A DNA stretch of 36,084 bases from a virus: positions 1 to 36,084 of IMG/VR virus record IMGVR_UViG_3300010938_000090; one strand, given 5' to 3'. How positions within the stretch are numbered: the first letter of the stretch is position 1; each line of letters begins with the position of its first letter. The position numbers and the translations under genes are program-made. The notes under the pieces are model-generated. The model did not search any database and was not told the DNA's origin. It saw nothing but the letters and a program-made list of their open reading frames with translations. Shown in pieces: positions 3,307 to 33,409 of the stretch.

Positions 3307-3350
3307 TTCCTGCGTGTTGAAGCACACGAACAGGAAAGGAAGGTAACGCA

Positions 3351-4280: not shown

Positions 4281-4301
4281 TCCTGAAACTGGAGGTAAAC
4301 C

Positions 4302-4505
4302 ATGATCCCGAAGGCCTACACCTACAAGGGTCTGAACACGGTGAAGGTGGACGACGAGGCAATCAAGTCTCTGAAGTCCAGCGCATCCGGCAAGGCCAAG
4401 GCACGCTACGTGCATCAGCCTTCCGACCCGTGCCAGGACTCCAGCACGGCAGGCTCCGGCGTGAAGCGTCGCGCTTACACGCCGGGCGGCCCGGCCGGTA
4501 GCTGA
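4302..4505 (+). CDS. Small protein co-transcribed with capsid
   Basis: A 67-residue protein preceded by CTGGAGGTAAACC, a good ribosome binding site, 21 bp after the capsid stop and just before the terminator hairpin. It is basic and Ser/Gly/Lys-rich (SLKSSASGKAKARYVHQ) and ends in a flexible TPGGPAGS tail. Its location suggests an abundant virion-associated peptide such as a decoration or cement protein. No family is recognised. Confidence 0.6.
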   Translation: MIPKAYTYKGLNTVKVDDEAIKSLKSSASGKAKARYVHQPSDPCQDSSTAGSGVKRRAYTPGGPAGS

Positions 4506-13392: not shown

Positions 13393-16300
13393 TGTCCGAT
13401 GAGGAAGCGTTCGGCGTCGTCCGGGAAGAAACCGGCGGTCCGCAATTCGTTTCCGGAAGGCAGCTTCTCAGCGACGATGAAGCGTTCGGCACGTCGCCCG
13501 CAAGCGGCGATCTGCGCGATCCGCGCGACATCGCGGCGACTCGCGGACGACCCTATGCGCCGGCGATTCAGCAGCAGAACATTCAGCAGCCACTGATCCC
13601 TGGCTCTGCCGGGATTTCTGGTGGATCGCTGTCTGACGGCATGGCCGAGTACGTGTCGTTCGCGTCTCGGCTTGATGAGGAGCAGCAGACGCCGAAACCG
13701 CCGCCCGGCGCCGGCGTCATGTGGGGATACAACGGACAGATTCCGTCCGTCGTACGGCTTCCACCTGCCGGACCGGGTGGGATCAGGCCGACAGGCGAGA
13801 TCGGTCCGATTACCGGACCCAAGCCGACACTCGGCACGATGGCGCGCCACCTCGGGCGGGTGGTCGAGGACGTGCCGAAAGACATGGTGTACGGCACGGC
13901 GGCTCAGATTGCCGGCCTTCTGTCGAAGGCTGGAGTCGACGGCATGGCCGGCGCTGAGAAGCGCGCCCTGCAAAAGCAGGCCAGACTGGAGCTCGAACGC
14001 CTGTCGATGCGCCCTGAGTTCGAGGAAGACGGCCTTGCCGCGCTCGCATACGGCGGTCTTGAGAACATCGCCTACATGGCCCCGGTCATCGCCGGCTCGC
14101 TGTTGCTTGCCCCGGGAGAGACGATCCCGGCATTGGCGGGGATTTTCGAGCAGCAGGCCGCACGGAGCTACGGCGAGTACAGGCGCAAGGGGATAGGGGT
14201 AGAAAGGGCGCTTCCGCTCGCCCAGTTGCAGGGCCTGATCGAAGCCGGGACGGAAGCCCTTCCGATGGCGACGGTCGTCAAGATTCTGGGGAAGGGCGGG
14301 CTCAAGACGCTTCTTTCACAACGTCTGCGGGAATGGGCCGGAAGGGAAGTTCCATCTGAACTTCTGGCGTCGCTGTCCGAGACGGCCGTTGATCGCTACC
14401 TTGCCGTTGGTCCGGACGAGAAGACGCCGACGCTTGCCGAGTACCTCGAAGAAGTCAAAGGCCAGATTCCGCAGATTCTCGTGACAACCGGCATGATGGC
14501 CGGCGGGCTTGGGCTTGCCGGCAGGGCCGCCCAGCGCGCCGAGCGGAAGGCGACTGGCATCAAGCCAAGGGAAGAGAAGGCCACGCCGGAGACGCTTGAG
14601 GCGATCGAGCAGATGAGGCAGGCGTCGGCCGCTCAACCGCCGCCGTCGAAGTCGTTCGAGGCCGTCAAGGACAAGTTCGTCGCCGAGAAGGACGAAAGCG
14701 GCAATGTCGTCTATCGCGCCCCGAATGGAGCGAGGATCACGCCAGATCAGTGGGAGAACGCATCTGACCGGCTCAAGACTGCGTGGCTGACCCCGGTAGA
14801 AGGAGTGGCCGAGCAACCTGTACAGCAGGGACAGCCGCAGGAGCAACCGCAGAAACGCGAGTCGAGAAGGGTTGCGACTCTGCGAGAAGCGCTCGACCGC
14901 GAGACCGACCCGAAGGCCCGCGTCGAACTGCAACGCAAGTTGCAGGAGGCTGTTCGTGATGAGCAAATCCAGGCGGCCGCCCTGGACAAGGCGCAGCGCC
15001 TGACCGAGCTTGCGGCATCCGTAGAGGATGAGGGAATCCGCAGGGAATTCCTCGACGAGGCGAAGGATCAGCTGCGTAGGGCTGGCATCCTTGCGGAGAA
15101 AGAAACGCCGCCGGCAACTGGCATTGCGGTCAGGGAGCTCACTCACGAGGAGTCCGTCGCATCCGATCTCGAATCCCTGACAGAGCAGAGGCCAAGCGCC
15201 AAGGGAATCAGCGTCTCCGAATCCACGCTGGATGAGGCCGTCGGGCAGGAAAAGCCGGAAGCGAAACCGAGCGCCAAGGGAATCAGCGTCGAGACGATCC
15301 CGTTCGAACAGGCTCTTCCAAAGGACGTGACGGAGAAAGCGGCCCCAACGGCCGGCATAAATGTCACCGAGATGACGCCGGAAGAGGCTCGATCCTCTGG
15401 GCTCATCGAGCATGCCGAAGCGATCACGCCGGAAGAATACGCGACCGAGAAAGCCAACAGTGAGGCGCAGATTGCCGCTCAGGAGGCGGCGGCGGCAGAG
15501 CAGCCGGTCCCCCCGGCTGGTGCGAAATCGGCAGACCGTGCGCTTGGTCTGATCGCCGAGGCGCGCCAGAGGATCCAGACGCTTCAGTCGGATGCGGAGC
15601 AGAACCCGGAGATCGCAGCAGAGGCGAAGAAGGAAATCGCTTTCGAACGGAACAAGATTCGCCGCCTCGTCGAGGCGAGGAGCGCGCTCGCCAAGGCGAC
15701 CAAGGTGAAGGACAAGGCTCTCCAGGCCAAGGTCGTCGAGAAGGCGAACAAGGTCATCGAGTCCTACGCCACGAAAGAGGAGCCCGCCAAAGTCGAAAAG
15801 GCCGGCAAGGAGCAGCCAGAGCCGAAGTACAAGGACAGCCGCCTGCTGACCCTTTTGGTGAAAGTCGGAGGCATCAGCAGGTCGATCATGCACGACCTTG
15901 GCCTGGACGACGTGTACAAGATCACGACCAGAATCGACAAGCGTGGCGTGCGCGTTCCTCAGAAGAGGAAACTCACCCAACTCATCATCAACGGGAAACC
16001 GCTCTTTCCGAAGGATGGCGGTCTACAGGAGGATGGGGTTCTCTACTACCTGAAAGAGGCCGGATTCCTCCAAAGCGATGATGTCGGGATAGATCAGGCA
16101 GGCAAGCTCATCGAGAGGGAACTTGAGTCTCCGGGGTCCGTTCGCCCAATCGGAGAGGCCGAACTCTTCGAGCAGGCGAAAGCGCAGAAGGCGCAGGATG
16201 AAGAGCACAGGGAAGAGCTCATCGACGACCTGCGCAGCATCGGCGTACACGTAGACAAGAACGCCAGCCTGAAGGACGTTCGTGAAGCGCATGCGCGAGC

Positions 16301-19300
16301 ATTCGCCAACGAATGGATTTCCGAGATGGACAATCAGGAACGCGAGGCTTATGACTTCTGGAAGAAGAAGCTCGGCCTCGTGGACGAAGACGCAATCAAT
16401 GCCGCATTGACCCGTCAGGCCGCCGAGATCGACCCGGATGCGATCGAGGAGGCGGCTCTTAGGCATGCAGATGATGACGATGCGTTCATGCGCGTCGTCA
16501 GGGAGGTGTTACGTGAGGGTTCCGCAAATGGACGTGAAAGCCGTGCAGGGCGGCCGCAGGTCACTGAACCGGCTGTACAAGGCGGCGCTGGTAATGCCCC
16601 CGTCGGTCTACCAGAGATGGCTATCTACACAGGAGGCCCTGAAAGCCGCGCACAGGATCAGGCCGGAGGTCAGGAAGGCGCCGCCAGGGGTCAACCCGAA
16701 CCTCGTGCCGTCGGCGAAGGTGCTGCCGTTTCCGAAGCTCAACCAGGGGCTGAACGCGGCGGAGGTGGCGCAGCCGGACGAGATCAGAAAAGGGACAACG
16801 TAAGGGAGTACAGGGAGGTACTGGACAACGCATCGAAGAGCCTGTCCGACTATTTCAAGCGTAACGTCAAGTTCGTCCTCGACGTTCCACGCACTCCGGA
16901 GCACAGGTTCTGGTTGGAGTTCATGAAGAACATCGGCGGCGAGGCCGCGTTCTTCAGGGATGAAGGCGACCACGTTGCCAACGGCTTCTACAACCGCAAG
17001 TCGAATGTCATCTTCATCAACGTCAATGCCGACAAGCCTGGGTTCGTCATCGCAGGCCACGAGTTCGGTCACTGGCTCAAGCAAAACCACGAGGATCTGT
17101 GGAAGCAGTTCCTGAGAGACATCCTGCCGAACATCAAGAACCTTCACGAGTACCACAAGGAACTGGCAGACAAGTACGTCCGGATGGGCGGCGAGCCATT
17201 GTCTGGCAGTCGAGTCATCGAGGAATTCGTTTCGGATGTGTTCTCGGACGCCCTGCACAGCAGGGACTTCCTGTTGGAAGTTGCGAAACAGGACGAGACG
17301 TTTTTCAGGAAACTGGCAAAAGCGATCGTCGATTGGATCGCCCAATTCGTTCGGAGAGTCAAGGCTGGTTCTGCGACGCATAGCCTCGTCGCGGATCGGT
17401 TCATCGAGGACATGCAGGCTGTTCGCTCACGCGCCATCGAAATCATGTCGATGTTGCAGCGAACGGCGAAAGAAACCAGAGAACTGGAGGCCCAGGTTCA
17501 GTCCGGTCTTGAGGGGATCGCGCTCGAACCGAAGAAAGAAGACCTCGACTTCGCGCTTGCCATCGCCGGACAGAACCTGCCATCGCCTCTCGGCACCAAC
17601 CAACCGGGCCAGCAGCTTGCGATGCTGCCAGAAGAGCGCGCGTGGGTTCGCAGGTGGTTCGACGTGTTCGATCGTGCGCTCGATGTCGAACGCGCTGCTG
17701 CCGAAGTAGGCAGGCCGCTGTCCGACAAGGAGTCGATCAGGCTTGCAGAGAAGCTGTTTCACGGCAAGGTGGAGCACGTCGGAAAGCAGTTCGACGAGAA
17801 GTACGTGAGACCTCTGGTCGAAGAGCTTCGCAAGATCAGGAAGCTCGACCTGACCGTCAAGGACGCGGGCGACTACCTGATGGCGAAGCACGCGCCCGAG
17901 CGCAACGCGACGATGGCGCTGCGCGATCCGCAGGGAAGGCAGGGGCTTTCCGGAATCACCGACCAGCAGGCCAAGCAGATCATCGGATCGTTCACCCCGG
18001 AGCAATCCGCCGCCCTGGAGCGTGTTGCCGATCTGGTCTACAAGATCAACGAGTTCAAGCTGGACACGCTGGTCAATTCCGGACTCATCAAGCAGGAAAG
18101 CGCTGACTTCCTGCGGCAGCAGTGGAAGTATTACGTGCCCCTGAAGGACATCAGCGTCGAGGACGAAATCACCGGCGTAGGACGCGGCTTCCAGATTTGG
18201 GCGAACGACATCAAGAAGGCGTTCGGACGAACGACGGCTGCCGGGAACCCGATCGCCAACGCGATCCACGACGCCACCCGCGCCATTCTTCGCGCAGGCA
18301 AAGCCGAGGTCGAGCAGACGATCTGGCGAGCCGCGCAGGTTCCGGAGCTGCACGACATCATCAGGCCGTACGATCCGGACAATCCCCCGGATGAAGTGAA
18401 GACCCGGAAGGACGACCCGGAGACCGGCACATGGAAGATGGTCGTCGATCCGGCAAAAGTCGATGCGCTGACCATGAACATGGTCATCAACAGCGAGAAC
18501 GTGCGCGTGTTCGTCCCGGACGAAACGCTTCTGACAGCACTCAAGAAGGCCGGGAACATCGAGAAGCTGGACGCGGTTTTGCGAGGAACGGCGGTCGTCA
18601 CGAGGACGCTCGGCCGGACGCTCACGGAATGGAACCCGACGTGGAGCCTGCCGAATGCCGTGAAGGATGCGATCGTGGCGACGCTGCGGTCGCGGGCGAT
18701 CAAGGGGATGAGTGCCGCGCGCGTGCTTGCCAGAATTCCGAAGGCGTGGGCGCAGATCATCGCATATCACGCCAACGAGAATTCCCCCCTTGCTGCGCCC
18801 TACAGGGAGTTTCTGGAGCAGGGAGGCAAGACGGGGGCATATGGACTGACCGGACCTGCAGAAATCCTTGCCGGCCTGGCAAGAAGCGGAGCCAGGGTAT
18901 CGGAAGAGCAGGGAGTCCTGACCGACGTTGGAAGGTACGCGCTCGCAGGCCCGAAGGCGATTCTCGACACGATGAGTTTCCTGAACGAGGTCGTCGAGTA
19001 TGCGACCCGCCTCGCGGCTTACACGGAGGCGCGCAGGGCCGGCTACTCGAAGGAGCGAGCAGCGGAGATCGCCAAGGAAATCACCGTGAACTTCAACCGC
19101 AAGGGCGAGATGTCGAAGCCCTTCGGCGCTCTGTACGTGTTCTTCAACGCTGCCATGCAGGGCACGTATGGAACGTTCAACCTCTTGAGCGGTGACCAGC
19201 GCCTCATCAAGGCGGGGAGCACGTCTCCAGCCAGGATGGTCACGGCCCTGTCCATCCTGCCTGCGCTCGGGATGGCAACCGAGTTCGTGAACTGGCTCGT

Positions 19301-20276
19301 CGGCGGTGACGATGAAGAATCCGGCCTGAAAAATCCGCAGACGATCAGCGAGTACACACTGGATCACAACGTCACCCTGTTCAATGGCAGGGAGAATGGC
19401 GGTCACTTCAAGATTCCGCTTCCGCCTGAGTACACGTTCCTGTACGCGATGGGCAGGAGGTCGGCGAACGCCGTTCTGACCGGGAAGTACATGCACAACG
19501 CGGCCGGCATCGTCGGCGGGATCATCGACTCGCTTGTGCCTGTCAGGCTGTCGGAAGCGGACAGCGTGCCGGAACAGCTTGCCAAGGCCGCGATTCCGTT
19601 TCCAGCAGCGCCGATTTACGATGTCATCATCAACAAGAACTTCCTCGGCGGAACGATCGTTCCTCCGCAGCGGACGCCGAACGCGCCTGTACCGTATGCG
19701 TCGATCGCGCGCAGGAGCACGTCGGATGTTGCGAAGCTCGTCTCCAAAGGGCTTAACGTCGCCACCGGAGGAGACGAGGTAACTCCTGGATACGCGCAGA
19801 AGGTTCTCGGACCGTTCGCAAGCGCAGAAGCGATCGAGTACATGACGAGGGCGTACACCGGCGGGCTCGGGCAGTTCGTCCTGCAAACGTCGAATCTGGT
19901 CAAGGCGCTCAAGGGCGACGAGTCTGCATTCGACCGGAACAAGGCCCCGGTCGTCTCGCGCTTCTATTCCGAGAGACCGAAGGGATACATGGCGCGCGCT
20001 TTCGACAAGGTGGAGGGCGCGATTCAGCGCGAGATGCGCAGACAGAAAGCCGGACTCGCCGAAGAGGATGATGCTGCGCGGGATGTGATTTTCACCTACA
20101 GGTCGGTAAACTCTGAACTCAAGAAGCTGTTCGACGAACAGAAGAAGGCCGCAATCGAAGGAGACCTGAAACGGTCCGAAGATCTTCAGGAAAGCATCAG
20201 GGCCGTTCAGGCACGCTTGGTCAGGGCATACCTTGATGCCCGTCGTTCCAAAGGGCTGAAGCCCGTTCTGCCGTAG
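13392..20276 (+). CDS. Giant ejected internal virion protein with metallopeptidase motif and LPD38-like C-terminus
   Basis: 2294 residues, the T7 gp16 position. The start ATG overlaps the previous stop (TGATG). Regions: Gly/Pro-rich N-terminus (1-130); membrane-seeking helices (~190-380; APVIAGSLLLAPGETIPALA); charged helical linkers with four short GI(S/A/N)V repeats (~570-690); coiled coil (~715-800); low-complexity G/A/Q/E linker (~1041-1137) that overlaps a nested gene; a zincin-like domain with HEFGH at 1223-1227 and a candidate third ligand at E1277/E1278 (VIEEFVSD); helical middle; and from ~1747 a region like the large polyvalent protein associated domain LPD38 (NPTWSLPNAVKD, then FNRKGEMSKPFGALYVFF). 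I infer entry into the host with the DNA, where the peptidase may act. No lytic transglycosylase motif was seen. Confidence 0.8.
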   Translation: MSDEEAFGVVREETGGPQFVSGRQLLSDDEAFGTSPASGDLRDPRDIAATRGRPYAPAIQQQNIQQPLIPGSAGISGGSLSDGMAEYVSFASRLDEEQQTPKPPPGAGVMWGYNGQIPSVVRLPPAGPGGIRPTGEIGPITGPKPTLGTMARHLGRVVEDVPKDMVYGTAAQIAGLLSKAGVDGMAGAEKRALQKQARLELERLSMRPEFEEDGLAALAYGGLENIAYMAPVIAGSLLLAPGETIPALAGIFEQQAARSYGEYRRKGIGVERALPLAQLQGLIEAGTEALPMATVVKILGKGGLKTLLSQRLREWAGREVPSELLASLSETAVDRYLAVGPDEKTPTLAEYLEEVKGQIPQILVTTGMMAGGLGLAGRAAQRAERKATGIKPREEKATPETLEAIEQMRQASAAQPPPSKSFEAVKDKFVAEKDESGNVVYRAPNGARITPDQWENASDRLKTAWLTPVEGVAEQPVQQGQPQEQPQKRESRRVATLREALDRETDPKARVELQRKLQEAVRDEQIQAAALDKAQRLTELAASVEDEGIRREFLDEAKDQLRRAGILAEKETPPATGIAVRELTHEESVASDLESLTEQRPSAKGISVSESTLDEAVGQEKPEAKPSAKGISVETIPFEQALPKDVTEKAAPTAGINVTEMTPEEARSSGLIEHAEAITPEEYATEKANSEAQIAAQEAAAAEQPVPPAGAKSADRALGLIAEARQRIQTLQSDAEQNPEIAAEAKKEIAFERNKIRRLVEARSALAKATKVKDKALQAKVVEKANKVIESYATKEEPAKVEKAGKEQPEPKYKDSRLLTLLVKVGGISRSIMHDLGLDDVYKITTRIDKRGVRVPQKRKLTQLIINGKPLFPKDGGLQEDGVLYYLKEAGFLQSDDVGIDQAGKLIERELESPGSVRPIGEAELFEQAKAQKAQDEEHREELIDDLRSIGVHVDKNASLKDVREAHARAFANEWISEMDNQEREAYDFWKKKLGLVDEDAINAALTRQAAEIDPDAIEEAALRHADDDDAFMRVVREVLREGSANGRESRAGRPQVTEPAVQGGAGNAPVGLPEMAIYTGGPESRAQDQAGGQEGAARGQPEPRAVGEGAAVSEAQPGAERGGGGAAGRDQKRDNVREYREVLDNASKSLSDYFKRNVKFVLDVPRTPEHRFWLEFMKNIGGEAAFFRDEGDHVANGFYNRKSNVIFINVNADKPGFVIAGHEFGHWLKQNHEDLWKQFLRDILPNIKNLHEYHKELADKYVRMGGEPLSGSRVIEEFVSDVFSDALHSRDFLLEVAKQDETFFRKLAKAIVDWIAQFVRRVKAGSATHSLVADRFIEDMQAVRSRAIEIMSMLQRTAKETRELEAQVQSGLEGIALEPKKEDLDFALAIAGQNLPSPLGTNQPGQQLAMLPEERAWVRRWFDVFDRALDVERAAAEVGRPLSDKESIRLAEKLFHGKVEHVGKQFDEKYVRPLVEELRKIRKLDLTVKDAGDYLMAKHAPERNATMALRDPQGRQGLSGITDQQAKQIIGSFTPEQSAALERVADLVYKINEFKLDTLVNSGLIKQESADFLRQQWKYYVPLKDISVEDEITGVGRGFQIWANDIKKAFGRTTAAGNPIANAIHDATRAILRAGKAEVEQTIWRAAQVPELHDIIRPYDPDNPPDEVKTRKDDPETGTWKMVVDPAKVDALTMNMVINSENVRVFVPDETLLTALKKAGNIEKLDAVLRGTAVVTRTLGRTLTEWNPTWSLPNAVKDAIVATLRSRAIKGMSAARVLARIPKAWAQIIAYHANENSPLAAPYREFLEQGGKTGAYGLTGPAEILAGLARSGARVSEEQGVLTDVGRYALAGPKAILDTMSFLNEVVEYATRLAAYTEARRAGYSKERAAEIAKEITVNFNRKGEMSKPFGALYVFFNAAMQGTYGTFNLLSGDQRLIKAGSTSPARMVTALSILPALGMATEFVNWLVGGDDEESGLKNPQTISEYTLDHNVTLFNGRENGGHFKIPLPPEYTFLYAMGRRSANAVLTGKYMHNAAGIVGGIIDSLVPVRLSEADSVPEQLAKAAIPFPAAPIYDVIINKNFLGGTIVPPQRTPNAPVPYASIARRSTSDVAKLVSKGLNVATGGDEVTPGYAQKVLGPFASAEAIEYMTRAYTGGLGQFVLQTSNLVKALKGDESAFDRNKAPVVSRFYSERPKGYMARAFDKVEGAIQREMRRQKAGLAEEDDAARDVIFTYRSVNSELKKLFDEQKKAAIEGDLKRSEDLQESIRAVQARLVRAYLDARRSKGLKPVLP
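16513..16803 (+). CDS. Nested out-of-frame gene within the giant virion protein gene
   Basis: A 96-residue frame starting GTG at 16513, with GGGAGGTG at 16501-16508 as a near-perfect Shine-Dalgarno sequence (4-6 bp spacing). It is shifted relative to the 13392-20276 gene. By hand count 81 of 96 nested codons end in G/C (84%), against 44 of 96 (46%) for the host frame over the same bases; in the host frame near 17041 about 84% do. The nested product is basic and ordinary-looking (SLNRLYKAALVMPPSVYQRW), while the overlapped host residues are a low-complexity G/A/Q/E linker. This suggests that selection acts on the nested frame. No family is recognised. Confidence 0.65.
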   Translation: MRVPQMDVKAVQGGRRSLNRLYKAALVMPPSVYQRWLSTQEALKAAHRIRPEVRKAPPGVNPNLVPSAKVLPFPKLNQGLNAAEVAQPDEIRKGTT

Positions 20277-20285
20277 GAGAAGGAA

Positions 20286-20597
20286 GTGGACGTTCCAACC
20301 GAAGTGAAAGAAGCCGCACCTGGGGCGCTTGGTGCGCTCGTTGCGCTTCGGTGGTATGCCAGATACGGAAGATGGCAGGCCGCTTCGATGTTCGTTGGAG
20401 GGTGTGCCCTGAGTTACTTCGGCTCGGCGACCGTCGCCGGCTGGTTGTCTCTGAGCGGAAGCATCGGGTTGACCGGATTTCTGCTTGGCATGTTGGGCAT
20501 GGCGATCGTTGCCAAGCTGTTCGACCTGATCGACCAGATTGACCCCGCTGCAATATGGACGATCGTGCGCGATTGGATTGCAAAGAAACTGGGGTGA
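20286..20597 (+). CDS. Holin-like membrane protein
   Basis: 103 residues, GTG start preceded by AGGAGAAGGAA. After an N-terminal amphipathic stretch (VPTEVKEAAPGALGALVALR) there are two or three hydrophobic segments: AASMFVGGCALSYFGSATVA and GSIGLTGFLLGMLGMAIVAK, with a charged C-terminus (DWIAKKLG). The size, topology and position at the head of the lysis module fit a phage holin that permeabilises the inner membrane. The alternative is the antiholin, with the next gene as holin. Confidence 0.7.
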   Translation: MDVPTEVKEAAPGALGALVALRWYARYGRWQAASMFVGGCALSYFGSATVAGWLSLSGSIGLTGFLLGMLGMAIVAKLFDLIDQIDPAAIWTIVRDWIAKKLG

Positions 20598-20600
20598 CGT

Positions 20601-20870
20601 ATGGCAAACGCGGTGGCGTTCATGTCGCTCGTCGCAGTGCTGTTCATGAGCCTGTGGCTGATTATGTCCACGTGTTACAGAGAGACTTGGACGCAGTTCA
20701 TCGGCCTCAGCATTCTCGTATTGGCGTCTGGAGCGAGGATCAACGATGCGCTGGCTGGAGAACTTGGTACTGAAGACGTGGCTTTCTTCCTTGGGGCGGC
20801 GCTCTTCCTCGCAGGACTCGTCCACAAAGTCCTCAAGTACAGAAAGCGAGCCATCGGCAAGGAAGCCTGA
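20601..20870 (+). CDS. Second small membrane protein of the lysis module (holin or antiholin)
   Basis: 89 residues with three hydrophobic segments (VAFMSLVAVLFMSLWLIMS, FIGLSILVLASGARI, VAFFLGAALFLAGLVHKVL) and a basic tail (KYRKRAIGKEA). It lies 3 bp after the upstream holin-like gene and 4 bp before the DUF5675-like gene. Paired small membrane proteins next to a spanin pair are usual for holin/antiholin systems; which is which cannot be told from the sequence. Confidence 0.65.
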   Translation: MANAVAFMSLVAVLFMSLWLIMSTCYRETWTQFIGLSILVLASGARINDALAGELGTEDVAFFLGAALFLAGLVHKVLKYRKRAIGKEA

Positions 20871-20874
20871 GCCG

Positions 20875-21285
20875 ATGGGCATGGAGCTCGACCTGCGGCG
20901 TGTCGAACTGTCAGCGATCTGTACGATCGGTGAGCTGTACGTCGATGGCGAGTTCGAGTGCTACACGTTGGAGGATGCCGTCCGTGACCGCAAAATCCCA
21001 GGAGAGACTGCGATCCCTCCAGGCAGATACCAGGTCGTTCTCAACTGGTCGCCAAGGTTCAAGCGGATTCTGCCGCTTCTCGTGGATGTTCCAGGCTTTG
21101 AGGGTGTTCGCATCCACCCCGGCAATACCGCTGCTGATACCGAAGGCTGCATCCTCGTCGGCAGAGTGCGCGGTGCGTCGGCTGTGTTTCAGTCGAGGGA
21201 TGCCTTCGATGGGTTATTCATCAAGCTCGAAGCGGCGACTATAGTCGGTCGGGAAATCTGGATCACGGTTCGCAACGTGACATGA
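20875..21285 (+). CDS. DUF5675-family protein in the endolysin position
   Basis: 136 residues. The pattern STIGELYVDGEF-like start (ICTIGELYVDGEFECYTLED), IPPGRYQVVLNWSPRFKRIL and the strongly conserved-looking RIHPGNTAADTEGCILVG are the hallmarks I remember for DUF5675. The His...Gly-Cys order recalls the active site of YkuD-type L,D-transpeptidases, but that link is only my inference. It lies between the holin-like genes and Rz/Rz1, where an endolysin is expected, and no other muralytic enzyme is visible in this window. The ATG at 20875 has AAGGAAG upstream; an ATG at 20881 is also possible. The stop overlaps the next gene by ATGA. Confidence 0.75.
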   Translation: MGMELDLRRVELSAICTIGELYVDGEFECYTLEDAVRDRKIPGETAIPPGRYQVVLNWSPRFKRILPLLVDVPGFEGVRIHPGNTAADTEGCILVGRVRGASAVFQSRDAFDGLFIKLEAATIVGREIWITVRNVT

Positions 21286-22382: not shown

Positions 22383-22748
22383 TCACGAAGCTTGGCTTGG
22401 CACTCCGTGCGCAATCGCCCACCACGCGCTCGGTGTCCCTTCTACCCAGTGTCCGGCGGCACCCAACCAGCGGCAACGCCACGGCTGCCTGTCCTGCCTG
22501 TACATCAGCACGGGAATGTGGTTGATGCCAGCCTGTGCAATCGCCTGCTCCCACCAATCGTCAACGATTGCGGCGGTGACGCGCTTGGCGATCTTGACCT
22601 CGATCGAGTAGCTAGCCAGACCTAGTAGATCACTGTCTCCGTCGTGCTGACGGACACGACGTGTTACCTCGCACCCGGTGACCTCACTGAGAACCTTGGC
22701 CGCCTCGCGCTCGCCACGCTTGCCCTTGTTCCGCTGCATCAGTCCCAT
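22383..22748 (-). CDS. PD-(D/E)XK-type nuclease, resolvase-like
   Basis: 121 residues. The motif sequence fits a small PD-(D/E)XK nuclease: a conserved N-terminal Glu (KGKRGEREAAKVLSE), Asp in HDGDSDLLGL, and the E-x-K pair in SIEVKIAKR, followed by a helix (DDWWEQAIAQAG) and a strand with PVLMYRQDR. Small phage proteins of this type process recombination or replication intermediates, often as Holliday junction resolvases. It is the last gene of the leftward early operon, which also has exonuclease, annealing protein and SSB. The start has GGTGGA upstream. Confidence 0.72.
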   Translation of the reverse strand: MGLMQRNKGKRGEREAAKVLSEVTGCEVTRRVRQHDGDSDLLGLASYSIEVKIAKRVTAAIVDDWWEQAIAQAGINHIPVLMYRQDRQPWRCRWLGAAGHWVEGTPSAWWAIAHGVPSQAS

Positions 22749-22760
22749 TCGTCCACCATT

Positions 22761-23243
22761 TCACTTCGGCTTGCGGCCATAGATTGGTTGCGCGAACGCT
22801 TGTCCATGGAACCGAACCACATCGACACCGAACCCAGTGTTCACATCAAGCTTGGACGCAATAATCACTGCGCGCTCTGCCGAGGCTCCGGCATACATCG
22901 CCCCGAGGGCGTAATCGCAGCCAGAGCCGATAGCCCAAACTCTTCTGCCGTGCGGAGCCCATCCGTTCGAGAATGACGCGCGGACCCACGCATATCCGCT
23001 ATGGTCAATCAGCAGCAGCGACCAGTGATCATCTTCCCGCCAGCGCGGCTCGTCGCCACCACTAAGCCAGTGCAACCAGGCGCGGTACATGTAGACGCTG
23101 CCTGAGAAGCCTATCAGGCAAGGCCTGCCGTCCGGGTCGTTGATCCGCAGTACTTTCGGTTGCAAGCTGCGTAGAGGAGTGTTGCCAGCGTTGATTTGTC
23201 GGTCGGCGGCCATGGTGCGGCCGTCCCATGCGATCGTCGTCAC
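22761..23243 (-). CDS. Proteasome/HslV-like N-terminal nucleophile threonine peptidase
   Basis: 160 residues from a GTG at 23243, with AGGAGGTAG just upstream. This start encodes fMet-Thr-Thr, so removal of Met exposes Thr at the N-terminus, the nucleophile of this family (TTIAWDGRTMAADRQ). A TTG 18 bp upstream would bury the Thr. Family marks seen: AADRQ (the Asp), QPKVLRI (the Lys33-like position), IGFSGS, and AIGSGCDYALGAMYAGASAE (the GSG loop and following helix). Proteasome beta/HslV proteins form compartmental proteases. No HslU-like ATPase is visible in this window, so a host partner or self-contained activity is possible. Whether it is active is not known. Confidence 0.75.
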   Translation of the reverse strand: MTTIAWDGRTMAADRQINAGNTPLRSLQPKVLRINDPDGRPCLIGFSGSVYMYRAWLHWLSGGDEPRWREDDHWSLLLIDHSGYAWVRASFSNGWAPHGRRVWAIGSGCDYALGAMYAGASAERAVIIASKLDVNTGFGVDVVRFHGQAFAQPIYGRKPK

Positions 23244-23244
23244 C

Positions 23245-23289
23245 CTACCTCCTATCCACAAGCTTGTAACCGACAGTCACGTTTTTCAT
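23245..23289 (-). CDS. 14-residue linker reading frame before the peptidase gene
   Basis: ATG at 23289 overlaps the stop of the 23286-23705 gene (ATGA). The frame encodes MKNVTVGYKLVDRR and ends at TAG (23245-23247), within the Shine-Dalgarno region of the peptidase and one base before its GTG. It fills the intergenic gap exactly. It may act as a relay for ribosomes between the two genes rather than make a functional peptide. Confidence 0.3.
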   Translation of the reverse strand: MKNVTVGYKLVDRR

Positions 23290-23724: not shown

Positions 23725-25371
23725 TTAAGTGTGAAGCGCGTCCACGTACGCGGCTATGAATTCGGCCGCAACTTGCGGGACGATGGCGTTGCCGTAGGCG
23801 CGCAGTCGTCCCACTCGGGCGGGTATCCCATGAGCCAGCGGCAAAAGGCCGGGTTGAGTTGGCCGCGCTTTTCCGTCGGAGCATGGGAGCCAGACGAGAC
23901 CGGACCATGGGTCAGGTACACCTGCCGCGGCAACTGATCCAGCCGTTTCGTGCCGTCCGCTCTGTCCTTGATCGGTCCGGTGTCCTTCCAGTCCCTCGTC
24001 GTCGGGGTTGTCCATCCCGCAAGCTGCGCTGCCGACTGGATGTTCATTCCCCCGTTGCGTCCAGATGTTCCGGCCCCTGTAGTACTGCTTGCTGTCGGTG
24101 TGGGCCAACTTGCCAAGTTCGCCGTGCCCGGCAACTTCAGAACTTTCGCGCGCGATCCGTCCGGTTTCTTCGGCCCATAGCAGTGCGTGCCCCCTGTTGC
24201 ATCGTTCGCCATTGGTGTCGGCCACGGGACCAGCAGCACTTGACCCTGCAAGTTCAAGGTGTGCCCCTTCCGTTTCTCCGGGTGCTGCCCGCTCCAGTCT
24301 CCGTTCGACTTCGTCGGAGATCGCCACCCAGTACAACCGCTGTCTGTGGTGCGGGGCACCGACGCTGCAAGCCGGCAGATCTGCCGCCCCGACGGCGTAG
24401 CCTGCGTTTTCCAGGTCAGAGAAAACAGAGGACTGCCCCGACCAGCCAGTCTTTCCTTCAGTCGTTCGTTCAAGGAGTTCTGCAAGTGCTCGCTGCGCGC
24501 TTTCCGTTGACTCAAAATCGCCGACGCAATCAGCGTTATCTTGTCTGGCCCCCAAGTGTTCGCCATCACATTCAGCGAATAGAGAACCACTCGGACGTTG
24601 TCCATCGTATACCCGCAGGCAGGGTCGATCCGATCCAGCGACGGCGCATTCCACGCTCGCGGCGTTGAAGTGTCGAACGGAATCCCGGTCAACTCGCATC
24701 GTCCGGCGTCGATCCTCCGCTGAATGTCGGCAGGGTCCAGATCGAATGGAAGCTGCTTCAACTTCGCCCGATGCTTCGCAACATTGGTCAATGCATACCC
24801 GCGTTTCTTGTCGCGCCACGACTTCTGGGCGGCGGCCACCTTCGGCGTGTGACGCCTCTTGCGGTCGCGCTCCGCCGACGTGACGCACGCCTTGCAGGTA
24901 CTGCGGTAGTTTCCCTTGGAATTGGCGTAGAACTCGCTCAACGGTTTCTCTGTCGCGCAGCGTTTGCACGTCCGAACCCTGAGCAGATAGCCATCTGAGC
25001 CCAAGCGCGCCGCTGACTTGTTCGCCGAATACAATGGGCGGTCGGCACTCGCGGATGAGCCTGAAGAACTCGGGCCAGAGGTGGCGCTCATCGTCGCTGC
25101 CACGCTGTTTGCCTGCGACGCTGAATGGCTGGCAGGGGCAAGAGCCTGTCCAAACAGGTCGGTCGTCTGGCCATCCTGCGAGTCGCAGGGCGAGTGACCA
25201 TCCGCCGATGCCGGCGAAGAAGTGGCATTGCGTGTAGCCTCGTAAGTCATCATGGTGTACCTCGGTAATGCTGCGCTCGTCCACGTCACCCGGCGCGATG
25301 TGGCCGGCTGCGATCAGATTGCGCAGCCACTGAGCTGCGTATGGCTCTATCTCGTTGTAGTACGCTGGCAT
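23725..25371 (-). CDS. DNA cytosine-5 methyltransferase with ~190-residue insertion
   Basis: 548 residues from ATG 25371 (GGTGG upstream). Motifs: I at 51-57 (FFAGIGG, SAM binding); IV at 79-84 (PCQPFS; catalytic Cys80 that attacks cytosine C6); VI-like EQV at 117-119; after a long insertion, [20 protein letters not shown] and RQRLYWVA (motif VIII-like); and motif X-like [14 protein letters not shown] at the end. Normally ~20-30 residues separate motif VI and the RQR region; here ~190 do. That stretch has no methyltransferase features and corresponds, in another frame, to an HNH nuclease domain. The target recognition part is also overlapped. The gene probably modifies phage DNA against restriction. 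Catalytic competence with the insertion is uncertain. Confidence 0.78.
23754..25253 (-). CDS. Long nested gene in the methyltransferase: HNH nuclease-like domain plus methylase-associated sequence
   Basis: 499 residues, wholly inside the methyltransferase gene in another frame, from ATG 25253 with GAGG 6 bp upstream. Residues 30-50 ([16 protein letters not shown]) and 260-499 ([17 protein letters not shown], repeated W-TPT phrases, [16 protein letters not shown]) resemble sequences I remember from phage methylase-associated proteins. Residues ~95-245 are an inserted HNH-like unit: a Cys4 zinc knuckle (C96, C99, C120, C123), CELTGIPF, and [19 protein letters not shown]. In a 39-codon sample of the HNH part about three quarters of codons end in G/C, against under half in the methyltransferase frame, so this frame is favoured there. 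It could be a separate protein or be joined to the outer frame by a frameshift. Confidence 0.68.
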
Positions 25372-26232: not shown

Positions 26233-26423
26233 CTGCCTATCTCCTTTTCGATCATCTTGCGAAGGATGAAGCACATCCATTGCGCGTGCGTGCGGGAATC
26301 GTGATCTGGCCCGGCGTTCCAGAGAACGAACTTCCAGAACGCCAAGCGCAGCACGATCAACGACGCACGAAGCGGGCTGAATCCATCAGAACGGAATGTC
26401 ATCGTCCATTTCGGCAATTCCAC
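26229..26423 (-). CDS. Hypothetical small early protein
   Basis: 64 residues from a GTG at 26423, with AAAGGAG 7 bp upstream. It overlaps the 3' end of the SSB gene by 38 bp, and the Shine-Dalgarno sequence lies within ssb. The middle is moderately hydrophobic (LIVLRLAFWKFVLWNAG), followed by a polar end with HAQWMCFILRKMIEKE. Four genes in this stretch are linked by overlaps. No family is recognised. Confidence 0.6.
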   Translation of the reverse strand: MELPKWTMTFRSDGFSPLRASLIVLRLAFWKFVLWNAGPDHDSRTHAQWMCFILRKMIEKEIGR

Positions 26424-26808
26424 CTTTTTTCTCCTTTACGTTTGGCGCATCCTTCTCGGCATGCGTTTCCTTTGCTTGGGCGTCCGGCTTATTTCCTCCA
26501 CCGAGAAACGCGATCTCCGCGACTCTGCCCACCAGAGAATATCCTGACGTTCCGCCATTCTTCTGGAACTGCTGCACGTGCGGATCGCGCACCTCGACGT
26601 AGACTCGCGTTCCCTTCGTCAAGTAAGGCGCGAGTGATTGCGCCCGTTCTCCAAACACGGTGCCGCTAACCCACTGAGTCTGCCGTTTGCCGTTGGCGTC
26701 CTTGCGCCCGAAGTTGAACGCGAGAGAGAGGTTGGCAATCGTCGAGCCGTCACTCGTTTCGCGCAGTTCTGCATCTCGTCCCAGCGTTGCAATTCCGATG
26801 AGTACCAT
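26386..26808 (-). CDS. ssb: Single-stranded DNA-binding protein
   Basis: 140 residues. An OB-fold N-terminal domain is clear (IATLGRDAELRETSDGSTIA, then LSLAFNFGRKDANG, WVSGTVFGERAQSLAPYLTK and VYVEVRDPHV). It is followed by a Gly/Lys-rich linker and the acidic tip MDDDIPF, the standard SSB tail that binds replication and repair partners. Upstream AGGAG sits 9 bp before ATG. It coats ssDNA in phage replication and recombination and sits with a putative annealing protein and exonuclease gene. Confidence 0.93.
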   Translation of the reverse strand: MVLIGIATLGRDAELRETSDGSTIANLSLAFNFGRKDANGKRQTQWVSGTVFGERAQSLAPYLTKGTRVYVEVRDPHVQQFQKNGGTSGYSLVGRVAEIAFLGGGNKPDAQAKETHAEKDAPNVKEKKGGIAEMDDDIPF

Positions 26809-30326: not shown

Positions 30327-30727
30327 TGGAGAAAACGACTGAGTTGCCGGCGGATGGTCCGTACGAGAACGGGGATGTCATCGTCGGCACGGCGCGAAAC
30401 GAGACGACCGGGCAGCAAGAAGTCATGGTGACCGTGTTCGGTCCGCATGACGAGCGGTTCGATATGTACATGGACCAAGATGAAGCATTGCGGTTGGCGT
30501 TCATGTTGACGGCCGGCGTATTCGAGGCGATCGCAAGGCACAAGGCAGGGACGAGCGTTCGTGAACTGGTGGTTGAGGTCAAGCGCGAGATGGACGACGG
30601 CAGGGTTTTCGATCTTCGCCTCAATCTCGAACAGACGAAGCAGGTCGTCTCCTCCATCGTGGAGGCGGCGACGTACGTGTCGGCGCTGAACGGCGAGCAA
30701 ATGCAATGCGTTGGCCCGATGCAATAG
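30326..30727 (+). CDS. Hypothetical protein before the sugar cassette
   Basis: 133 residues from ATG 30326, with AAAGGAG 6 bp upstream. A beta-rich N-terminus (DVIVGTARNETTGQQEVMVT, VFGPHDERFDMYMDQDEALR) is followed by helices (ALRLAFMLTAGVFEAIARHK) and a helical end. No motif is recognised. It overlaps the next gene by 22 bp and so is likely co-expressed with the cassette. Confidence 0.6.
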   Translation: MEKTTELPADGPYENGDVIVGTARNETTGQQEVMVTVFGPHDERFDMYMDQDEALRLAFMLTAGVFEAIARHKAGTSVRELVVEVKREMDDGRVFDLRLNLEQTKQVVSSIVEAATYVSALNGEQMQCVGPMQ

Positions 30728-31353
30728 TCATTGCAGGCAGCGGCCCGTCGCTGACCGAGGACGCCGCAAACTGGATTCGGCATGTGCCAGTGCTGGCGGT
30801 CAACGATGCGTATCGCAGGGTGCAGCATGCTTTCGCAATCTATGCGGCCGACTTCAACTGGTGGCAGTTTCATTGCCAGCACCACGACCGCTACGGAAAG
30901 CCTGGCATCCTGACGATCTGCCCGGGGGCTATGCGCTTCTCCGCAGAGCCAGCAGCGCGGGAAAGGTTCGGATGTGAGATCGTGACTCTCGACAGCGGTC
31001 GCGGCATCAGCCGTGGCGGCAACGTGGTGCGCAGGGGCTACGGCAGCGGCTTTCAGGCCGTCGGTCTGGCGATCAACATGGGCGTGCGGCGCATCGCCTT
31101 GATCGGGATGGACTGCAAGCGCGGTGACGACGGGAGGTCGCACTTCTTCGGCGATCACCCGCAGGAGCTTCCTGTACCGCAGCCATTCGAGCTTTGGGTG
31201 GACGATTTCAATTCGCTCGCAGAGCCGGCCCGGATGCTTGGGATCAGGATTGCAGACGCATCGAATGGTGCGATCACGGCTATCGAGAAGATCAATCCGC
31301 AGGACATCGAGGAGTGGCTTCGTGAAGAAGAAGGCGTGGGTCAATCTGCGTAG
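30706..31353 (+). CDS. MptE/DUF115-like Rossmann-fold protein
   Basis: 215 residues. It starts with DAIVIAGSGPSLTEDAANWI, the glycine-rich GSGPSL loop of the DUF115/MptE-like superfamily that also contains glycan-modifying proteins. VPVLAVNDAYRRVQHAFAIY, ADFNWW, GFQAVGLAINMGVRRIALIG and MDCKRG follow the same order. Phages often carry such genes next to glycosyltransferases, sometimes labelled norphogenetic protein. I infer a sugar-related role in this cassette; the substrate is not known. Confidence 0.7.
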   Translation: MRWPDAIVIAGSGPSLTEDAANWIRHVPVLAVNDAYRRVQHAFAIYAADFNWWQFHCQHHDRYGKPGILTICPGAMRFSAEPAARERFGCEIVTLDSGRGISRGGNVVRRGYGSGFQAVGLAINMGVRRIALIGMDCKRGDDGRSHFFGDHPQELPVPQPFELWVDDFNSLAEPARMLGIRIADASNGAITAIEKINPQDIEEWLREEEGVGQSA

Positions 31354-32125: not shown

Positions 32126-32894
32126 CTGCAAAAAGCGCAAGGCCGAACTGATCTTCCGCGCGATGGCCGCGGGCGTGGAGAAGCGCGGTCACATCGCCGA
32201 ATACCGGACTTCGCCTTTCTGGTACGAGCGGACCATCGTCGATGCGGGGGAAGACGACGTGTGCGTGTTCTACGGGGTCACGGGAGAAACGAAAACCGCG
32301 TGGGATGGATGCGAGTTCACGAGGACCAAACGCCTGTACGTGGACAACGGGTACTTCGCCTCGACGTGGCAGAAGGACGACATCTACGAGGCGTACTTCC
32401 GCGTGACGCACGACGCGCCGCAGATCAATCCAAAGAATTGCAAGTGGGTCAAAGGCAGGGCGGCAGAGATCGGGGTCAGCGTCATCCCGTGGAGAGGGTT
32501 CGATTCTGCGAAGCCTGTGATCATCGTTCCGCAGACAAAGAAGTGGTACGAGATGCACGACACGACTTACGAGGCGTGGCTGATGCAGGCCGATTCGATC
32601 GCCCGGAACATGCCGTGCGCCGGCGTCAGCATCCTTGGCCAGAAGAACGACATCAAGATTCGCATCAAATCCTGGGCAAGCATCGCTTCAGGAATCGTGA
32701 CGCATTCGAGCGCAGCCGCGTTCGAGTGCATCGTTCAAGGTGTTCCAGCGGTGTCAACGTCTCCGGTCAGCGCGGCACATGGATTCGACGACACGTCGAT
32801 GGAAGGTCGCACGGAGTTCGCCGACAAGCTGTGCAGCAATCAGTGGCGGCTGGATGAGTTCGTGAAAGGCGATTGGCTTGACGTGGTGTTCTGA
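32106..32894 (+). CDS. Putative glycosyltransferase-like protein, GT-B type
   Basis: 262 residues, overlapping the previous gene by 20 bp and sharing one base with the next. The N-terminal Rossmann-like part (MRFLFIDCKKRKAELIFRAM) is followed by KRLYVDNGYFASTWQKDDIY, PVIIVPQTKKWYEMH and the GT-B-like donor segment IASGIVTHSSAAAFECIVQG followed by VPAVSTSP. The same layout occurs in the upstream neighbour, suggesting an old duplication. Probably transfers a sugar to a phage or host surface component; the acceptor is unknown. Confidence 0.65.
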   Translation: MRFLFIDCKKRKAELIFRAMAAGVEKRGHIAEYRTSPFWYERTIVDAGEDDVCVFYGVTGETKTAWDGCEFTRTKRLYVDNGYFASTWQKDDIYEAYFRVTHDAPQINPKNCKWVKGRAAEIGVSVIPWRGFDSAKPVIIVPQTKKWYEMHDTTYEAWLMQADSIARNMPCAGVSILGQKNDIKIRIKSWASIASGIVTHSSAAAFECIVQGVPAVSTSPVSAAHGFDDTSMEGRTEFADKLCSNQWRLDEFVKGDWLDVVF

Positions 32895-33409
32895 TGGCGC
32901 ACATCGACGACGACATTCTGGACAACTACCGGAGTCTGGCATCCTCCGGCCAGCAGTTCATCGGATACACCGTGATGAAGCATGCCGAGTCGATTGCCGG
33001 AATCGTCGGCGCATACGACGTTGCCTCGATCCTCGACTACGGCAGCGGCGGAGGGGTCGTGTGGAGGACCGGCAATCCGCTGTCGAGGATCGTCGAGGAG
33101 CGGTTCATCAAGGTCAGGATGTACGATCCTGCGTTCGAGGGGATCGACGAGTATCCCACCGGAACGTATGACCTCGTGATCTGCAGCGAAGTGCTGGAGC
33201 ATGTTGCAGAGCATCACCTAGACGGCGTTCTCGACGACCTCCGGCGGTTTGCCACCAAGGCGCTTTTCGTGACGACCTGCTCGCGCCCGGCCAAGAAGGC
33301 GTTCAAGGATGGCAGAAACATGCACCTGACGGTGAAGCCGTTCGAGTGGTGGGCGAAGAAGATCGTGGTGAATGACGGCGTTGCACTGTTCCACATCGAC
33401 ACGCCATAG
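32894..33409 (+). CDS. SAM-dependent methyltransferase, class I
   Basis: 171 residues. Motif I ILDYGSGGG near residue 47, the acidic post-I strand KVRMYDPAF, and motif II YDLVICSEVLEHVAEHHLDG identify the class I methyltransferase fold; the last motif is typical of small-molecule or sugar methyltransferases. It is short for a full enzyme, lacking part of the C-terminal strands. Its start shares one base with the previous stop (TGATG). It may methylate sugars added by the cassette. Confidence 0.78.
   Translation: MAHIDDDILDNYRSLASSGQQFIGYTVMKHAESIAGIVGAYDVASILDYGSGGGVVWRTGNPLSRIVEERFIKVRMYDPAFEGIDEYPTGTYDLVICSEVLEHVAEHHLDGVLDDLRRFATKALFVTTCSRPAKKAFKDGRNMHLTVKPFEWWAKKIVVNDGVALFHIDTP

What the first reader, a model, noticed from the sequence alone, without database searches (positions are those of the whole stretch)
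23754..25253. 1.5 kb of dual-coding DNA: methyltransferase in one frame, HNH nuclease plus methylase-associated protein in another
The outer frame keeps methyltransferase motifs before and after the central insert (FFAGIGG, PCQPFS, then RQRLYWVA and [14 protein letters not shown]). The inner 499-residue frame has its own ATG with GAGG, a Cys4 knuckle plus SLDRID...GY...NVRVV HNH-like core, and flanks ([41 protein letters not shown]) that I recall from proteins annotated as phage methylases. Both flanks therefore look conserved in both frames. The HNH insert seems to have gone into an already overlapping gene pair, with a length that kept both frames open. In a sample of the HNH region codon bias favours the inner frame. 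A long overlap with two constrained frames and a nuclease inserted would be a remarkable modification/nuclease pairing.
Basis: partly seen in the sequence, partly recalled or inferred. Interest (0 to 1): 0.85.

Follow-up and report, generated by a model that had tools for sequence, protein, structure and literature searches.

The report
Split methyltransferase hiding an HNH nuclease
One stretch of this phage's DNA is read in two frames at once: one frame gives most of a DNA-methylating enzyme, the other gives what looks like that enzyme's missing piece with a DNA-cutting (probably mobile) nuclease built into it, and the methylase frame has stayed free of stop codons straight across the nuclease.

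Summary
On the minus strand a C5-cytosine methyltransferase ORF ("alpha") overlaps a +1-frame ORF ("beta", 23754-25253). The +1 frame is coding throughout this phage family: 15 stops against 360 expected in 119 genes, with third positions constrained only where the frames overlap. Beta is not an accessory protein. It carries conserved motif IX, which alpha lacks, while alpha carries motifs I-VIII and X. That is the anatomy of the two-subunit enzyme M.EcoHK31I, so beta is most likely a subunit. In the window an HNH nuclease sits inside beta, in beta's frame, just after alpha motif VI, and alpha stays open across it (0 stops, 4.9 expected, P 0.001). This recurs. A related HNH occupies the same site in two other contigs, and a different HNH family sits just behind beta in dozens of viral loci. 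In 43 non-redundant loci the methylase frame has 0 stops across the HNH against 203 expected, so it is translated through, not spliced. Hidden out-of-frame HNHs in phage methylases were published in 2025 (ShiLan domain), and split C5 enzymes are old knowledge. The nesting in a conserved subunit frame, the HNH-beta fusion and the scale appear new. Expression, methylation and cleavage are untested.

The parts
23725..25371 (-). alpha: C5-cytosine methyltransferase ORF (548 aa from ATG 25371; GTG 25428 and ATG 25383 are alternative starts), motifs I-VIII and X, interrupted by an in-frame read-through of the HNH insert
   Evidence: phrog_363 E 4e-84, PF00145 E 2e-19; relatives begin at the same position with M(S/A)AYYNE
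23754..25253 (-). beta-HNH fusion: +1-frame ORF, 499 aa, N- and C-terminal parts are the nested beta subunit, middle is the HNH nuclease
   Evidence: phrog_1008 E 6e-32, phrog_31772 2e-25, phrog_3322 3e-28, phrog_1035 2e-23
25260..25263 (-). GAGG, Shine-Dalgarno-like, six bases before the first beta ATG (25253)
   Evidence: sequence; related genes that start beta elsewhere often use AGGAG formed by the alpha Arg-Ser codons
24487..25041 (-). approximate extent of the insert relative to uninterrupted relatives (about 555 nt, multiple of 3; edges inferred, cannot be fixed to the base)
   Evidence: alpha FGEQV-to-GYA spacing 210 against 25 residues; beta SSASA-to-LQ
24504..24980 (-). HNH/endonuclease VII-like domain in the beta frame (beta residues 92-250): CxxC..Cxx[22 protein letters not shown]
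   Evidence: phrog_3322/1035/3118; 36% identity to the HNH at the same site in L084
25201..25221 (-). alpha motif I, FFAGIGG
   Evidence: alignment A6
25120..25137 (-). alpha motif IV, PCQPFS (catalytic Cys)
   Evidence: alignment A6; aligns to M.HhaI
25015..25026 (-). alpha motif VI, GEQV; the insert follows it
24328..24345 (-). alpha motif VIII, RQRLYW
   Evidence: aligns to M.HhaI
23773..23796 (-). alpha motif X, YGNAIVPQ
   Evidence: motif IX-X profile hits alpha only at its motif X part
23811..23858 (-). beta motif [18 protein letters not shown]
   Evidence: motif IX-X profile hits beta only at its motif IX part; short helix modelled, pLDDT about 85
24360..24437 (-). beta hairpin [23 protein letters not shown] (residues 273-298), best-conserved element of beta besides motif IX
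   Evidence: strands 278-285 and 291-298, pLDDT about 90; conserved columns of A5

Best explanation
This is a split C5-cytosine methyltransferase of M.EcoHK31I type that has been invaded by a homing-type HNH nuclease. Alpha (motifs I-VIII and X) and beta (motif IX plus a variable repeat region) are read from the same DNA in frames 0 and +1, and are inferred to assemble into one enzyme. The HNH entered the shared DNA after alpha motif VI, in beta's frame, and here is fused within beta, so it is translated from beta's own start. Alpha is translated straight through the HNH sequence, which it reads as an apparently disordered stretch of about 185 residues. Neither RNA nor protein splicing is involved. 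Shown by sequence: dual coding, the distribution of motifs, and the open alpha frame across HNHs here and in dozens of relatives. Inferred: assembly of alpha and beta, activity of the methylase with its insert, and cleavage or homing by the HNH.
For: +1 frame coding: 15 stops against 360 expected (outer-recruited subset 10 against 176); third-position constraint confined to the overlap; AGGAG made by alpha's Arg-Ser codons in 25 of 61 genes with the commonest beta ATG, background for such codon pairs 2%. Split motifs: a profile of motifs IX-X from single-chain actinophage enzymes hits alpha only at motif X (83/137) and beta only at motif IX (135/137), shuffled or reversed beta 0-1; M.EcoHK31I has just this split (PMC3404938). 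HNH: alpha stops across it 0 against 4.9 (window), 7.8 (L084), 6.9 (L165); a second HNH family behind beta, 43 non-redundant loci, 0 against 203, third frame 133 against 126. HNH is under protein-level selection: L084 against L165 differ at 6/7/32 by HNH codon position, 11 HNH against 31 alpha residues. The HNH ORF starts within two codons of beta's stop in 37 of 47 loci. Known beta/alpha pair annotated in phage K1ind2.
Against: No protein, transcript, methylation or cleavage data. No Pfam model finds motif IX in beta, and the PDB search with it found nothing. The beta and alpha models have low overall confidence (pLDDT 58 and 56), so whether alpha tolerates the insert is not shown. The window's own HNH has no close relative, so selection on it was not measured directly. 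The LDRID-type core lacks the usual HNH histidine at the expected place, so activity cannot be assumed. Staphylococcus phage CUB-EPI_14 hides a related HNH in the +1 frame of a single-chain methylase without beta, so beta is not always needed to express such an HNH.
Confidence: 0.78

Rival explanations
1. The inner frame is a shadow: only alpha (and the HNH segment) is real and the flanking +1 frame is open by chance or composition.
For: Alpha is the recognised enzyme; the middle of beta is low-complexity and poorly modelled.
Against: Stops 15 against 360 under synonymous shuffles while the +2 frame is undepleted; third-position constraint only in the overlap, and in the variable region the most variable position is beta's wobble (0.41/0.28/0.29); beta has its own PHROG families and motif IX.
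Confidence: 0.03
2. Beta is a separate protein (for example an anti-restriction or regulatory protein overprinted on the methylase), not a methylase subunit.
For: Most of beta has no known fold or function; databases label it only by position; in several actinophages motif IX is in alpha's frame although a +1 ORF with PTP repeats is still present.
Against: Motif IX present in beta in 135/137 pairs and never detected in alpha; GordDuk1 carries motifs IX and X together in the +1 frame behind an alpha that ends after motif VIII; the part kept after disruptions (beta restart in L084/L165, after the intein in L219) is always the motif IX part.
Confidence: 0.15
3. The HNH lies in a self-splicing intron or is part of an intein, and alpha and beta are restored by splicing.
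For: HNH nucleases are common in group I introns and inteins; insertion is next to a conserved motif.
Against: No group I/II intron match in the region and only tens of bases beyond the HNH reading frame; no intein motifs, and a true intein in the same family (L219) looks quite different; 0 of 203 expected stops in the alpha frame across related HNHs makes sense only if alpha is read through unspliced. The ShiLan study also found neither (PMC11855218).
Confidence: 0.05
4. The HNH has become a functional part of a new alpha/beta-HNH enzyme (for example cleaving unmodified DNA) and is no longer a selfish element.
For: In-frame fusion with beta in the window; methylase and nuclease would always be made together.
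Against: Two unrelated HNH families at two sites, present in some members and absent from most; usually a separate ORF behind beta (34 of 47) rather than a fusion (3 of 47).
Confidence: 0.1

Closest known systems
M.EcoHK31I (two-subunit C5 methyltransferase, YGGCCR; Lee, Kam and Shaw 1995, as described in PMC3404938)
   Same: Large chain with motifs I-VIII and X, small chain with motif IX; both needed in vitro. I recall, but could not check, that the small gene also lies inside the large one in another frame.
   Different: M.EcoHK31I belongs to a restriction-modification system and has no HNH insert that I know of; here the genes are in a phage, beta is longer with PTP-type repeats, and carries a nuclease.
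ShiLan domain (hidden out-of-frame HNH in mycobacteriophage methylases; Arsenault, Gosselin and Gogarten 2025, PMC11855218)
   Same: HNH hidden out of frame in a phage DNA methylase, methylase frame open through it, no intron or intein detected, sporadic distribution.
   Different: ShiLan gp65 is a DPPY-type methylase; its HNH is in the third frame with its own GTG and TAA, and there is no pre-existing nested gene. Here the host gene was already dual-coding, the HNH is in the conserved beta frame and is fused to beta or starts at beta's stop.
phrog_1008 / phrog_31772 ('DNA methyltransferase') and 'Mte8-like protein' of phage K1ind2
   Same: Same nested beta family; K1ind2 annotates both frames, as does Paenibacillus phage Pagassa gp59/gp60.
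   Different: Database names probably come from position only; role as motif IX subunit not stated; no HNH.
M.AquI (alpha I-VIII, beta IX-X)
   Same: Two-chain C5 enzyme; Gordonia phage GordDuk1 shows this arrangement with beta in the +1 frame.
   Different: Here motif X stays in alpha.
Free-standing HNH/endonuclease VII-like homing nucleases (phrog_3322, phrog_1035)
   Same: Domain order Cys4 finger then LDRID..NVRxV core.
   Different: Normally separate genes between genes; here fused inside a nested subunit.

Membership tests
C5-cytosine DNA methyltransferase (outer ORF) | Motifs I, IV (PC), VI, VIII, X | tested here: met
   [33 protein letters not shown]00145 E 2e-19, M.HhaI E 2e-7
C5-cytosine DNA methyltransferase (outer ORF) | Motif IX in the same chain | tested here: not met
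   Profile hits alpha only at motif X
M.EcoHK31I-type split C5 methyltransferase | Large chain I-VIII and X, small chain IX | tested here: met
   definition from PMC3404938
M.EcoHK31I-type split C5 methyltransferase | Sequence homology to M.EcoHK31I chains | not tested
   The sequence was not found under that name in the collections searched
M.EcoHK31I-type split C5 methyltransferase | Both chains required for methylation | not testable with these tools
   needs expression
Hidden out-of-frame HNH insertion (ShiLan type) | HNH in another frame of a methylase gene, host frame open across it beyond chance | tested here: met
   0 stops against 4.9, P 0.001; family 0 against 203
Hidden out-of-frame HNH insertion (ShiLan type) | Own start and stop in the third frame | tested here: not met
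   Window HNH is in the +1 frame and fused to beta at both ends
Hidden out-of-frame HNH insertion (ShiLan type) | Mobility (present or absent among close relatives at the same site) | tested here: inconclusive
   Same site occupied in L084/L165, empty in most relatives; no pair of near-identical occupied and empty alleles found
HNH nuclease | Profile match to HNH/endonuclease families | tested here: met
   phrog_3322, 1035, 3118
HNH nuclease | Catalytic His in the core | tested here: inconclusive
   Core is SLDRID..N without the usual His at the first position, shared with L084
Group I/II intron | Intron RNA structure in the insert | tested here: not met
   No intron family up to E 1
Intein | Splicing motifs in the alpha frame | tested here: not met
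   None in alpha's insert by inspection; contrast L219, with CFPAGT..VHN

The most novel reading that the evidence does not exclude
Split phage C5 methyltransferases are a standing niche for 'frame-parasitic' HNH elements: the nuclease uses the nested beta subunit's frame and translation (fusion, or restart at beta's stop), carries a substitute beta end or start, and is shaped so that the alpha frame can be read straight through it. Three functions are thus encoded in one stretch of DNA without any splicing. This would answer, for these loci, how hidden HNHs are translated.
Probability: 0.6. Interest if true: 0.75.

Novelty: new variant of a known kind. Interest (0 to 1): 0.62.

Why it matters
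Long same-strand dual-coding genes are rarely proven. Here more than a hundred natural variants show it by stop depletion and codon-position divergence, and the second frame has an assignable role (motif IX subunit) instead of 'unknown'. It shows that a mobile nuclease can live in a protein-coding gene without intron or intein if it keeps the host frame open, and it offers a concrete answer (fusion to, or restart after, a nested subunit) to the question left open in the ShiLan work: how hidden HNHs are translated. It also corrects annotation: the inner proteins are now labelled 'DNA methyltransferase' or hypothetical, or are not called at all.

Tried and rejected
Shadow-frame hypothesis: rejected by stop depletion and codon-position divergence. 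Intron: no Rfam match. Intein: no motifs. A conserved alpha-frame domain of about 145 aa near motif X in L002/L089/L119/L135/L223: at first taken as a real domain, then found to be the shadow of an HNH in the beta frame. Ascertainment worry that only intact alpha ORFs had been noticed: tested with a search that started from the HNH protein; still 0 stops. Direct-repeat target duplication around the window insert: no DNA similarity between flanks (P 0.73), although protein-level flanks suggest each frame kept its own copy. Pfam, NCBIfam and PDB searches for beta: nothing for the flanks or motif IX. AlphaFold of beta and alpha: low confidence; only the beta hairpin, the motif IX helix and the alpha core usable. 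Plasmid search gave further phage-type alpha genes but no identified restriction partner. Literature searches for the overlap found nothing until the ShiLan paper and M.EcoHK31I.

Full report
WHAT IS THERE. The window is a 36-kb virus contig. On the minus strand a methyltransferase ORF (stop 23725, probable start ATG 25371) contains a second ORF, 25253-23754, whose first codon position is the second position of the outer codons. The outer product matches phrog_363 and PF00145; the inner product matches phrog_1008/31772 at its ends and endonuclease families in its middle.

IS THE SECOND FRAME REAL. I collected relatives from IMG/VR with the inner and the outer protein separately and shuffled synonymous codons within each outer gene. 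In 119 non-redundant genes the +1 frame has 15 stops against 360 expected and the +2 frame 1298 against 1202. Among genes found with the outer protein only, the +1 figures are 10 against 176. Substitution rates at outer codon positions 1/2/3 are .04/.02/.25 before the overlap.06/.03/.14.07/.03/.12 and .11/.05/.10 in successive overlap blocks, and .09/.06/.22 after it. In the variable region they are .41/.28/.29, i.e. the inner wobble position varies most (the variable region is hard to align, so that last figure is soft). In genes whose inner ATG lies at the commonest place, the outer Arg-Ser codons spell AGGAG in 25 of 61 cases against a 2% background for such codon pairs. The overlap is therefore a conserved dual-coding gene pair. 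Public records sometimes annotate both frames (K1ind2 ORF29/ORF28; Pagassa gp59/gp60).

WHAT THE INNER PROTEIN IS. Its C-terminus, [16 protein letters not shown], resembles C5-methyltransferase motif IX. A profile made only from enzymes that carry motifs IX and X in one chain (phages ShiLan gp70, Neville gp75, Yorick gp69, ReT1v, Soondubu gp44) was searched against 137 alpha/beta pairs. Beta matched only the motif IX half (135/137 at 5 bits or more), alpha only the motif X half (83/137), and shuffled or reversed beta 0-1. Alpha lacks a detectable IX; beta supplies it. Published descriptions of M.EcoHK31I give exactly this division: I-VIII and X in the large chain, only IX in the small one (PMC3404938); the title of the 1995 paper cited there says that two proteins are required for in vitro methylation. 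My memory that its small gene is nested in another frame could not be checked because that paper is not held. Gordonia phage GordDuk1 shows an AquI-like variant: alpha ends after motif VIII and the +1 frame carries IX and X. Natural disruptions agree that the C-terminal part of beta is what must be kept: an intein in a Dokdonella alpha breaks only beta's start, and in L084/L165 beta restarts with ATG directly after the HNH stop. I conclude that beta is the motif IX subunit; assembly with alpha is inferred.

THE HNH INSERT. Compared with uninterrupted relatives the window carries about 555 extra nucleotides after alpha motif VI, a multiple of three. In the beta frame they encode an HNH/endonuclease VII-like domain, fused to beta on both sides. 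In the alpha frame they are open although 4.9 stops would be expected from the HNH codons (P 0.001). A homologous HNH (36% identity) occupies the same site in two other contigs, there as a separate ORF with its own start and stop that splits beta. Alpha is again open (0 against 7.8 and 6.9). Between those two contigs the HNH changes mostly at its own third positions (6/7/32); 11 HNH residues differ while the alpha reading differs at 31. So the HNH protein is selected, and alpha is selected mainly for being open. Around the window insert the 5' side keeps alpha's [14 protein letters not shown] and the 3' side keeps beta's [13 protein letters not shown]; the two flanks show no DNA similarity, so a duplicated target is only suggested.

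A RECURRENT PHENOMENON. An apparent 145-residue alpha-frame domain before motif X in several relatives proved to be the shadow of another HNH family in the beta frame. A search that started from that HNH protein, so not conditioned on an open alpha frame, gave, together with loci already held, 43 non-redundant loci with methylase parts upstream and the HNH in the beta frame. Alpha stops across the HNH: 0 observed, 203 expected; third frame 133 observed, 126 expected. Beta usually ends in a stop and the HNH ORF begins within two codons (37 of 47 loci; directly in 24), which suggests termination-reinitiation; in 3 of 47 they are fused, as in the window. The phage isolates phiKX1 and Staphylococcus CUB-EPI_14 carry examples. 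In CUB-EPI_14 the methylase is single-chain and there is no beta frame, yet the HNH is again +1 and the methylase frame has 0 stops against 11.2 expected. So beta is not a general requirement.

MECHANISM. Because the alpha frame is under such strong selection against stops across the HNH, alpha must be translated through it. An intron would remove that constraint, and no intron or intein signal exists. The simplest account is a homing-type nuclease that tolerates its host by (i) keeping the alpha frame open, (ii) sitting in beta's frame, and (iii) providing beta with a substitute end, a restart, or a seamless fusion. In the window it is expressed from beta's Shine-Dalgarno and ATG as an internal domain. 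Alpha would carry about 185 extra, probably disordered residues after motif VI, which the low-confidence model neither supports nor excludes. Homing itself is inferred from the sporadic distribution, not shown.

COMPARISON AND NOVELTY. Hidden out-of-frame HNHs in phage methylases are known since the ShiLan study (PMC11855218), which left open how they are translated and proposed leaderless initiation. Split C5 enzymes are known since M.AquI and M.EcoHK31I. What I did not find described is that the host gene is itself a conserved dual-coding split enzyme, that the HNH shares the frame of the nested subunit (fused here, coupled elsewhere), and the statistical proof over dozens of loci. I rate it a new variant of a known kind.

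LIMITS. All evidence is sequence-based. The papers library holds only open-licence papers. Beta's role rests on one conserved motif and on analogy; scores for a 16-residue motif are modest, although the control sets are clean. Synonymous shuffles draw on each gene's own codons, which makes the expected stop counts conservative. The window's HNH has no close relative, so its current activity is unknown.

Noticed in passing
L219 (Dokdonella MAG JADJQH010000006.1), 2367-4422: True intein of about 375 aa inserted in the alpha frame within motif IV (CPC^CQPFS); it breaks the beta frame near its start while the rest of beta stays open.
   Followed up: partly
L314 (Staphylococcus phage CUB-EPI_14), 330-2135: Single-chain C5 methylase without a beta frame hides a site-2-type HNH in the +1 frame; 0 stops against 11.2 expected in the methylase frame despite AT-rich DNA.
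   Followed up: yes
L084 and L165, about 20-70 bases upstream of the HNH start: Near-perfect inverted repeat (TGCAACCTGTTCACC..GGTGAACAGGTTGCA) with TATAAT in its loop, overlapping the alpha motif VI codons at the HNH insertion site; possible promoter or target feature.
   Followed up: no
L226 2800-3966, L233 1300-2163, L231 1350-2600, L230 1279-2160 (actinophages): Single-chain or AquI-like C5 methylases with a +1 ORF of PTPxxxD repeats (SETWPxxGM..LLPTP); the frame holding motif IX differs between phages, suggesting frame switches in the history of the split.
   Followed up: partly
L057 1635-3072: A second, ENV-type C5 methylase directly upstream of an alpha/beta pair also has a +1 frame with WPTP repeats and LNPVFVCWLMGMP.
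   Followed up: no
phrog_1008 and phrog_31772: These PHROG families labelled 'DNA methyltransferase' are the nested beta proteins, i.e. apparently annotated by overlap position rather than by a catalytic domain.
   Followed up: partly
window 22764-23261 (-): Peptidase HslV-family protein (phrog_1040) downstream of the methylase in the same minus-strand cluster as SSB (26389-26808) and a RusA-like resolvase (22386-22748).
   Followed up: no
window 30706-31350 (+): Match to phrog_4603 'alpha-2,3-sialyltransferase' (E 6e-29), with a methyltransferase-like gene at 32894-33406; a small surface-sugar-type cluster at the right end.
   Followed up: no
window 13359-20276 (+) and 17427-20882 (-): A 2305-codon ORF matching phage families of unknown function has a 1151-codon open antisense ORF; not tested whether this is more than composition.
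   Followed up: no
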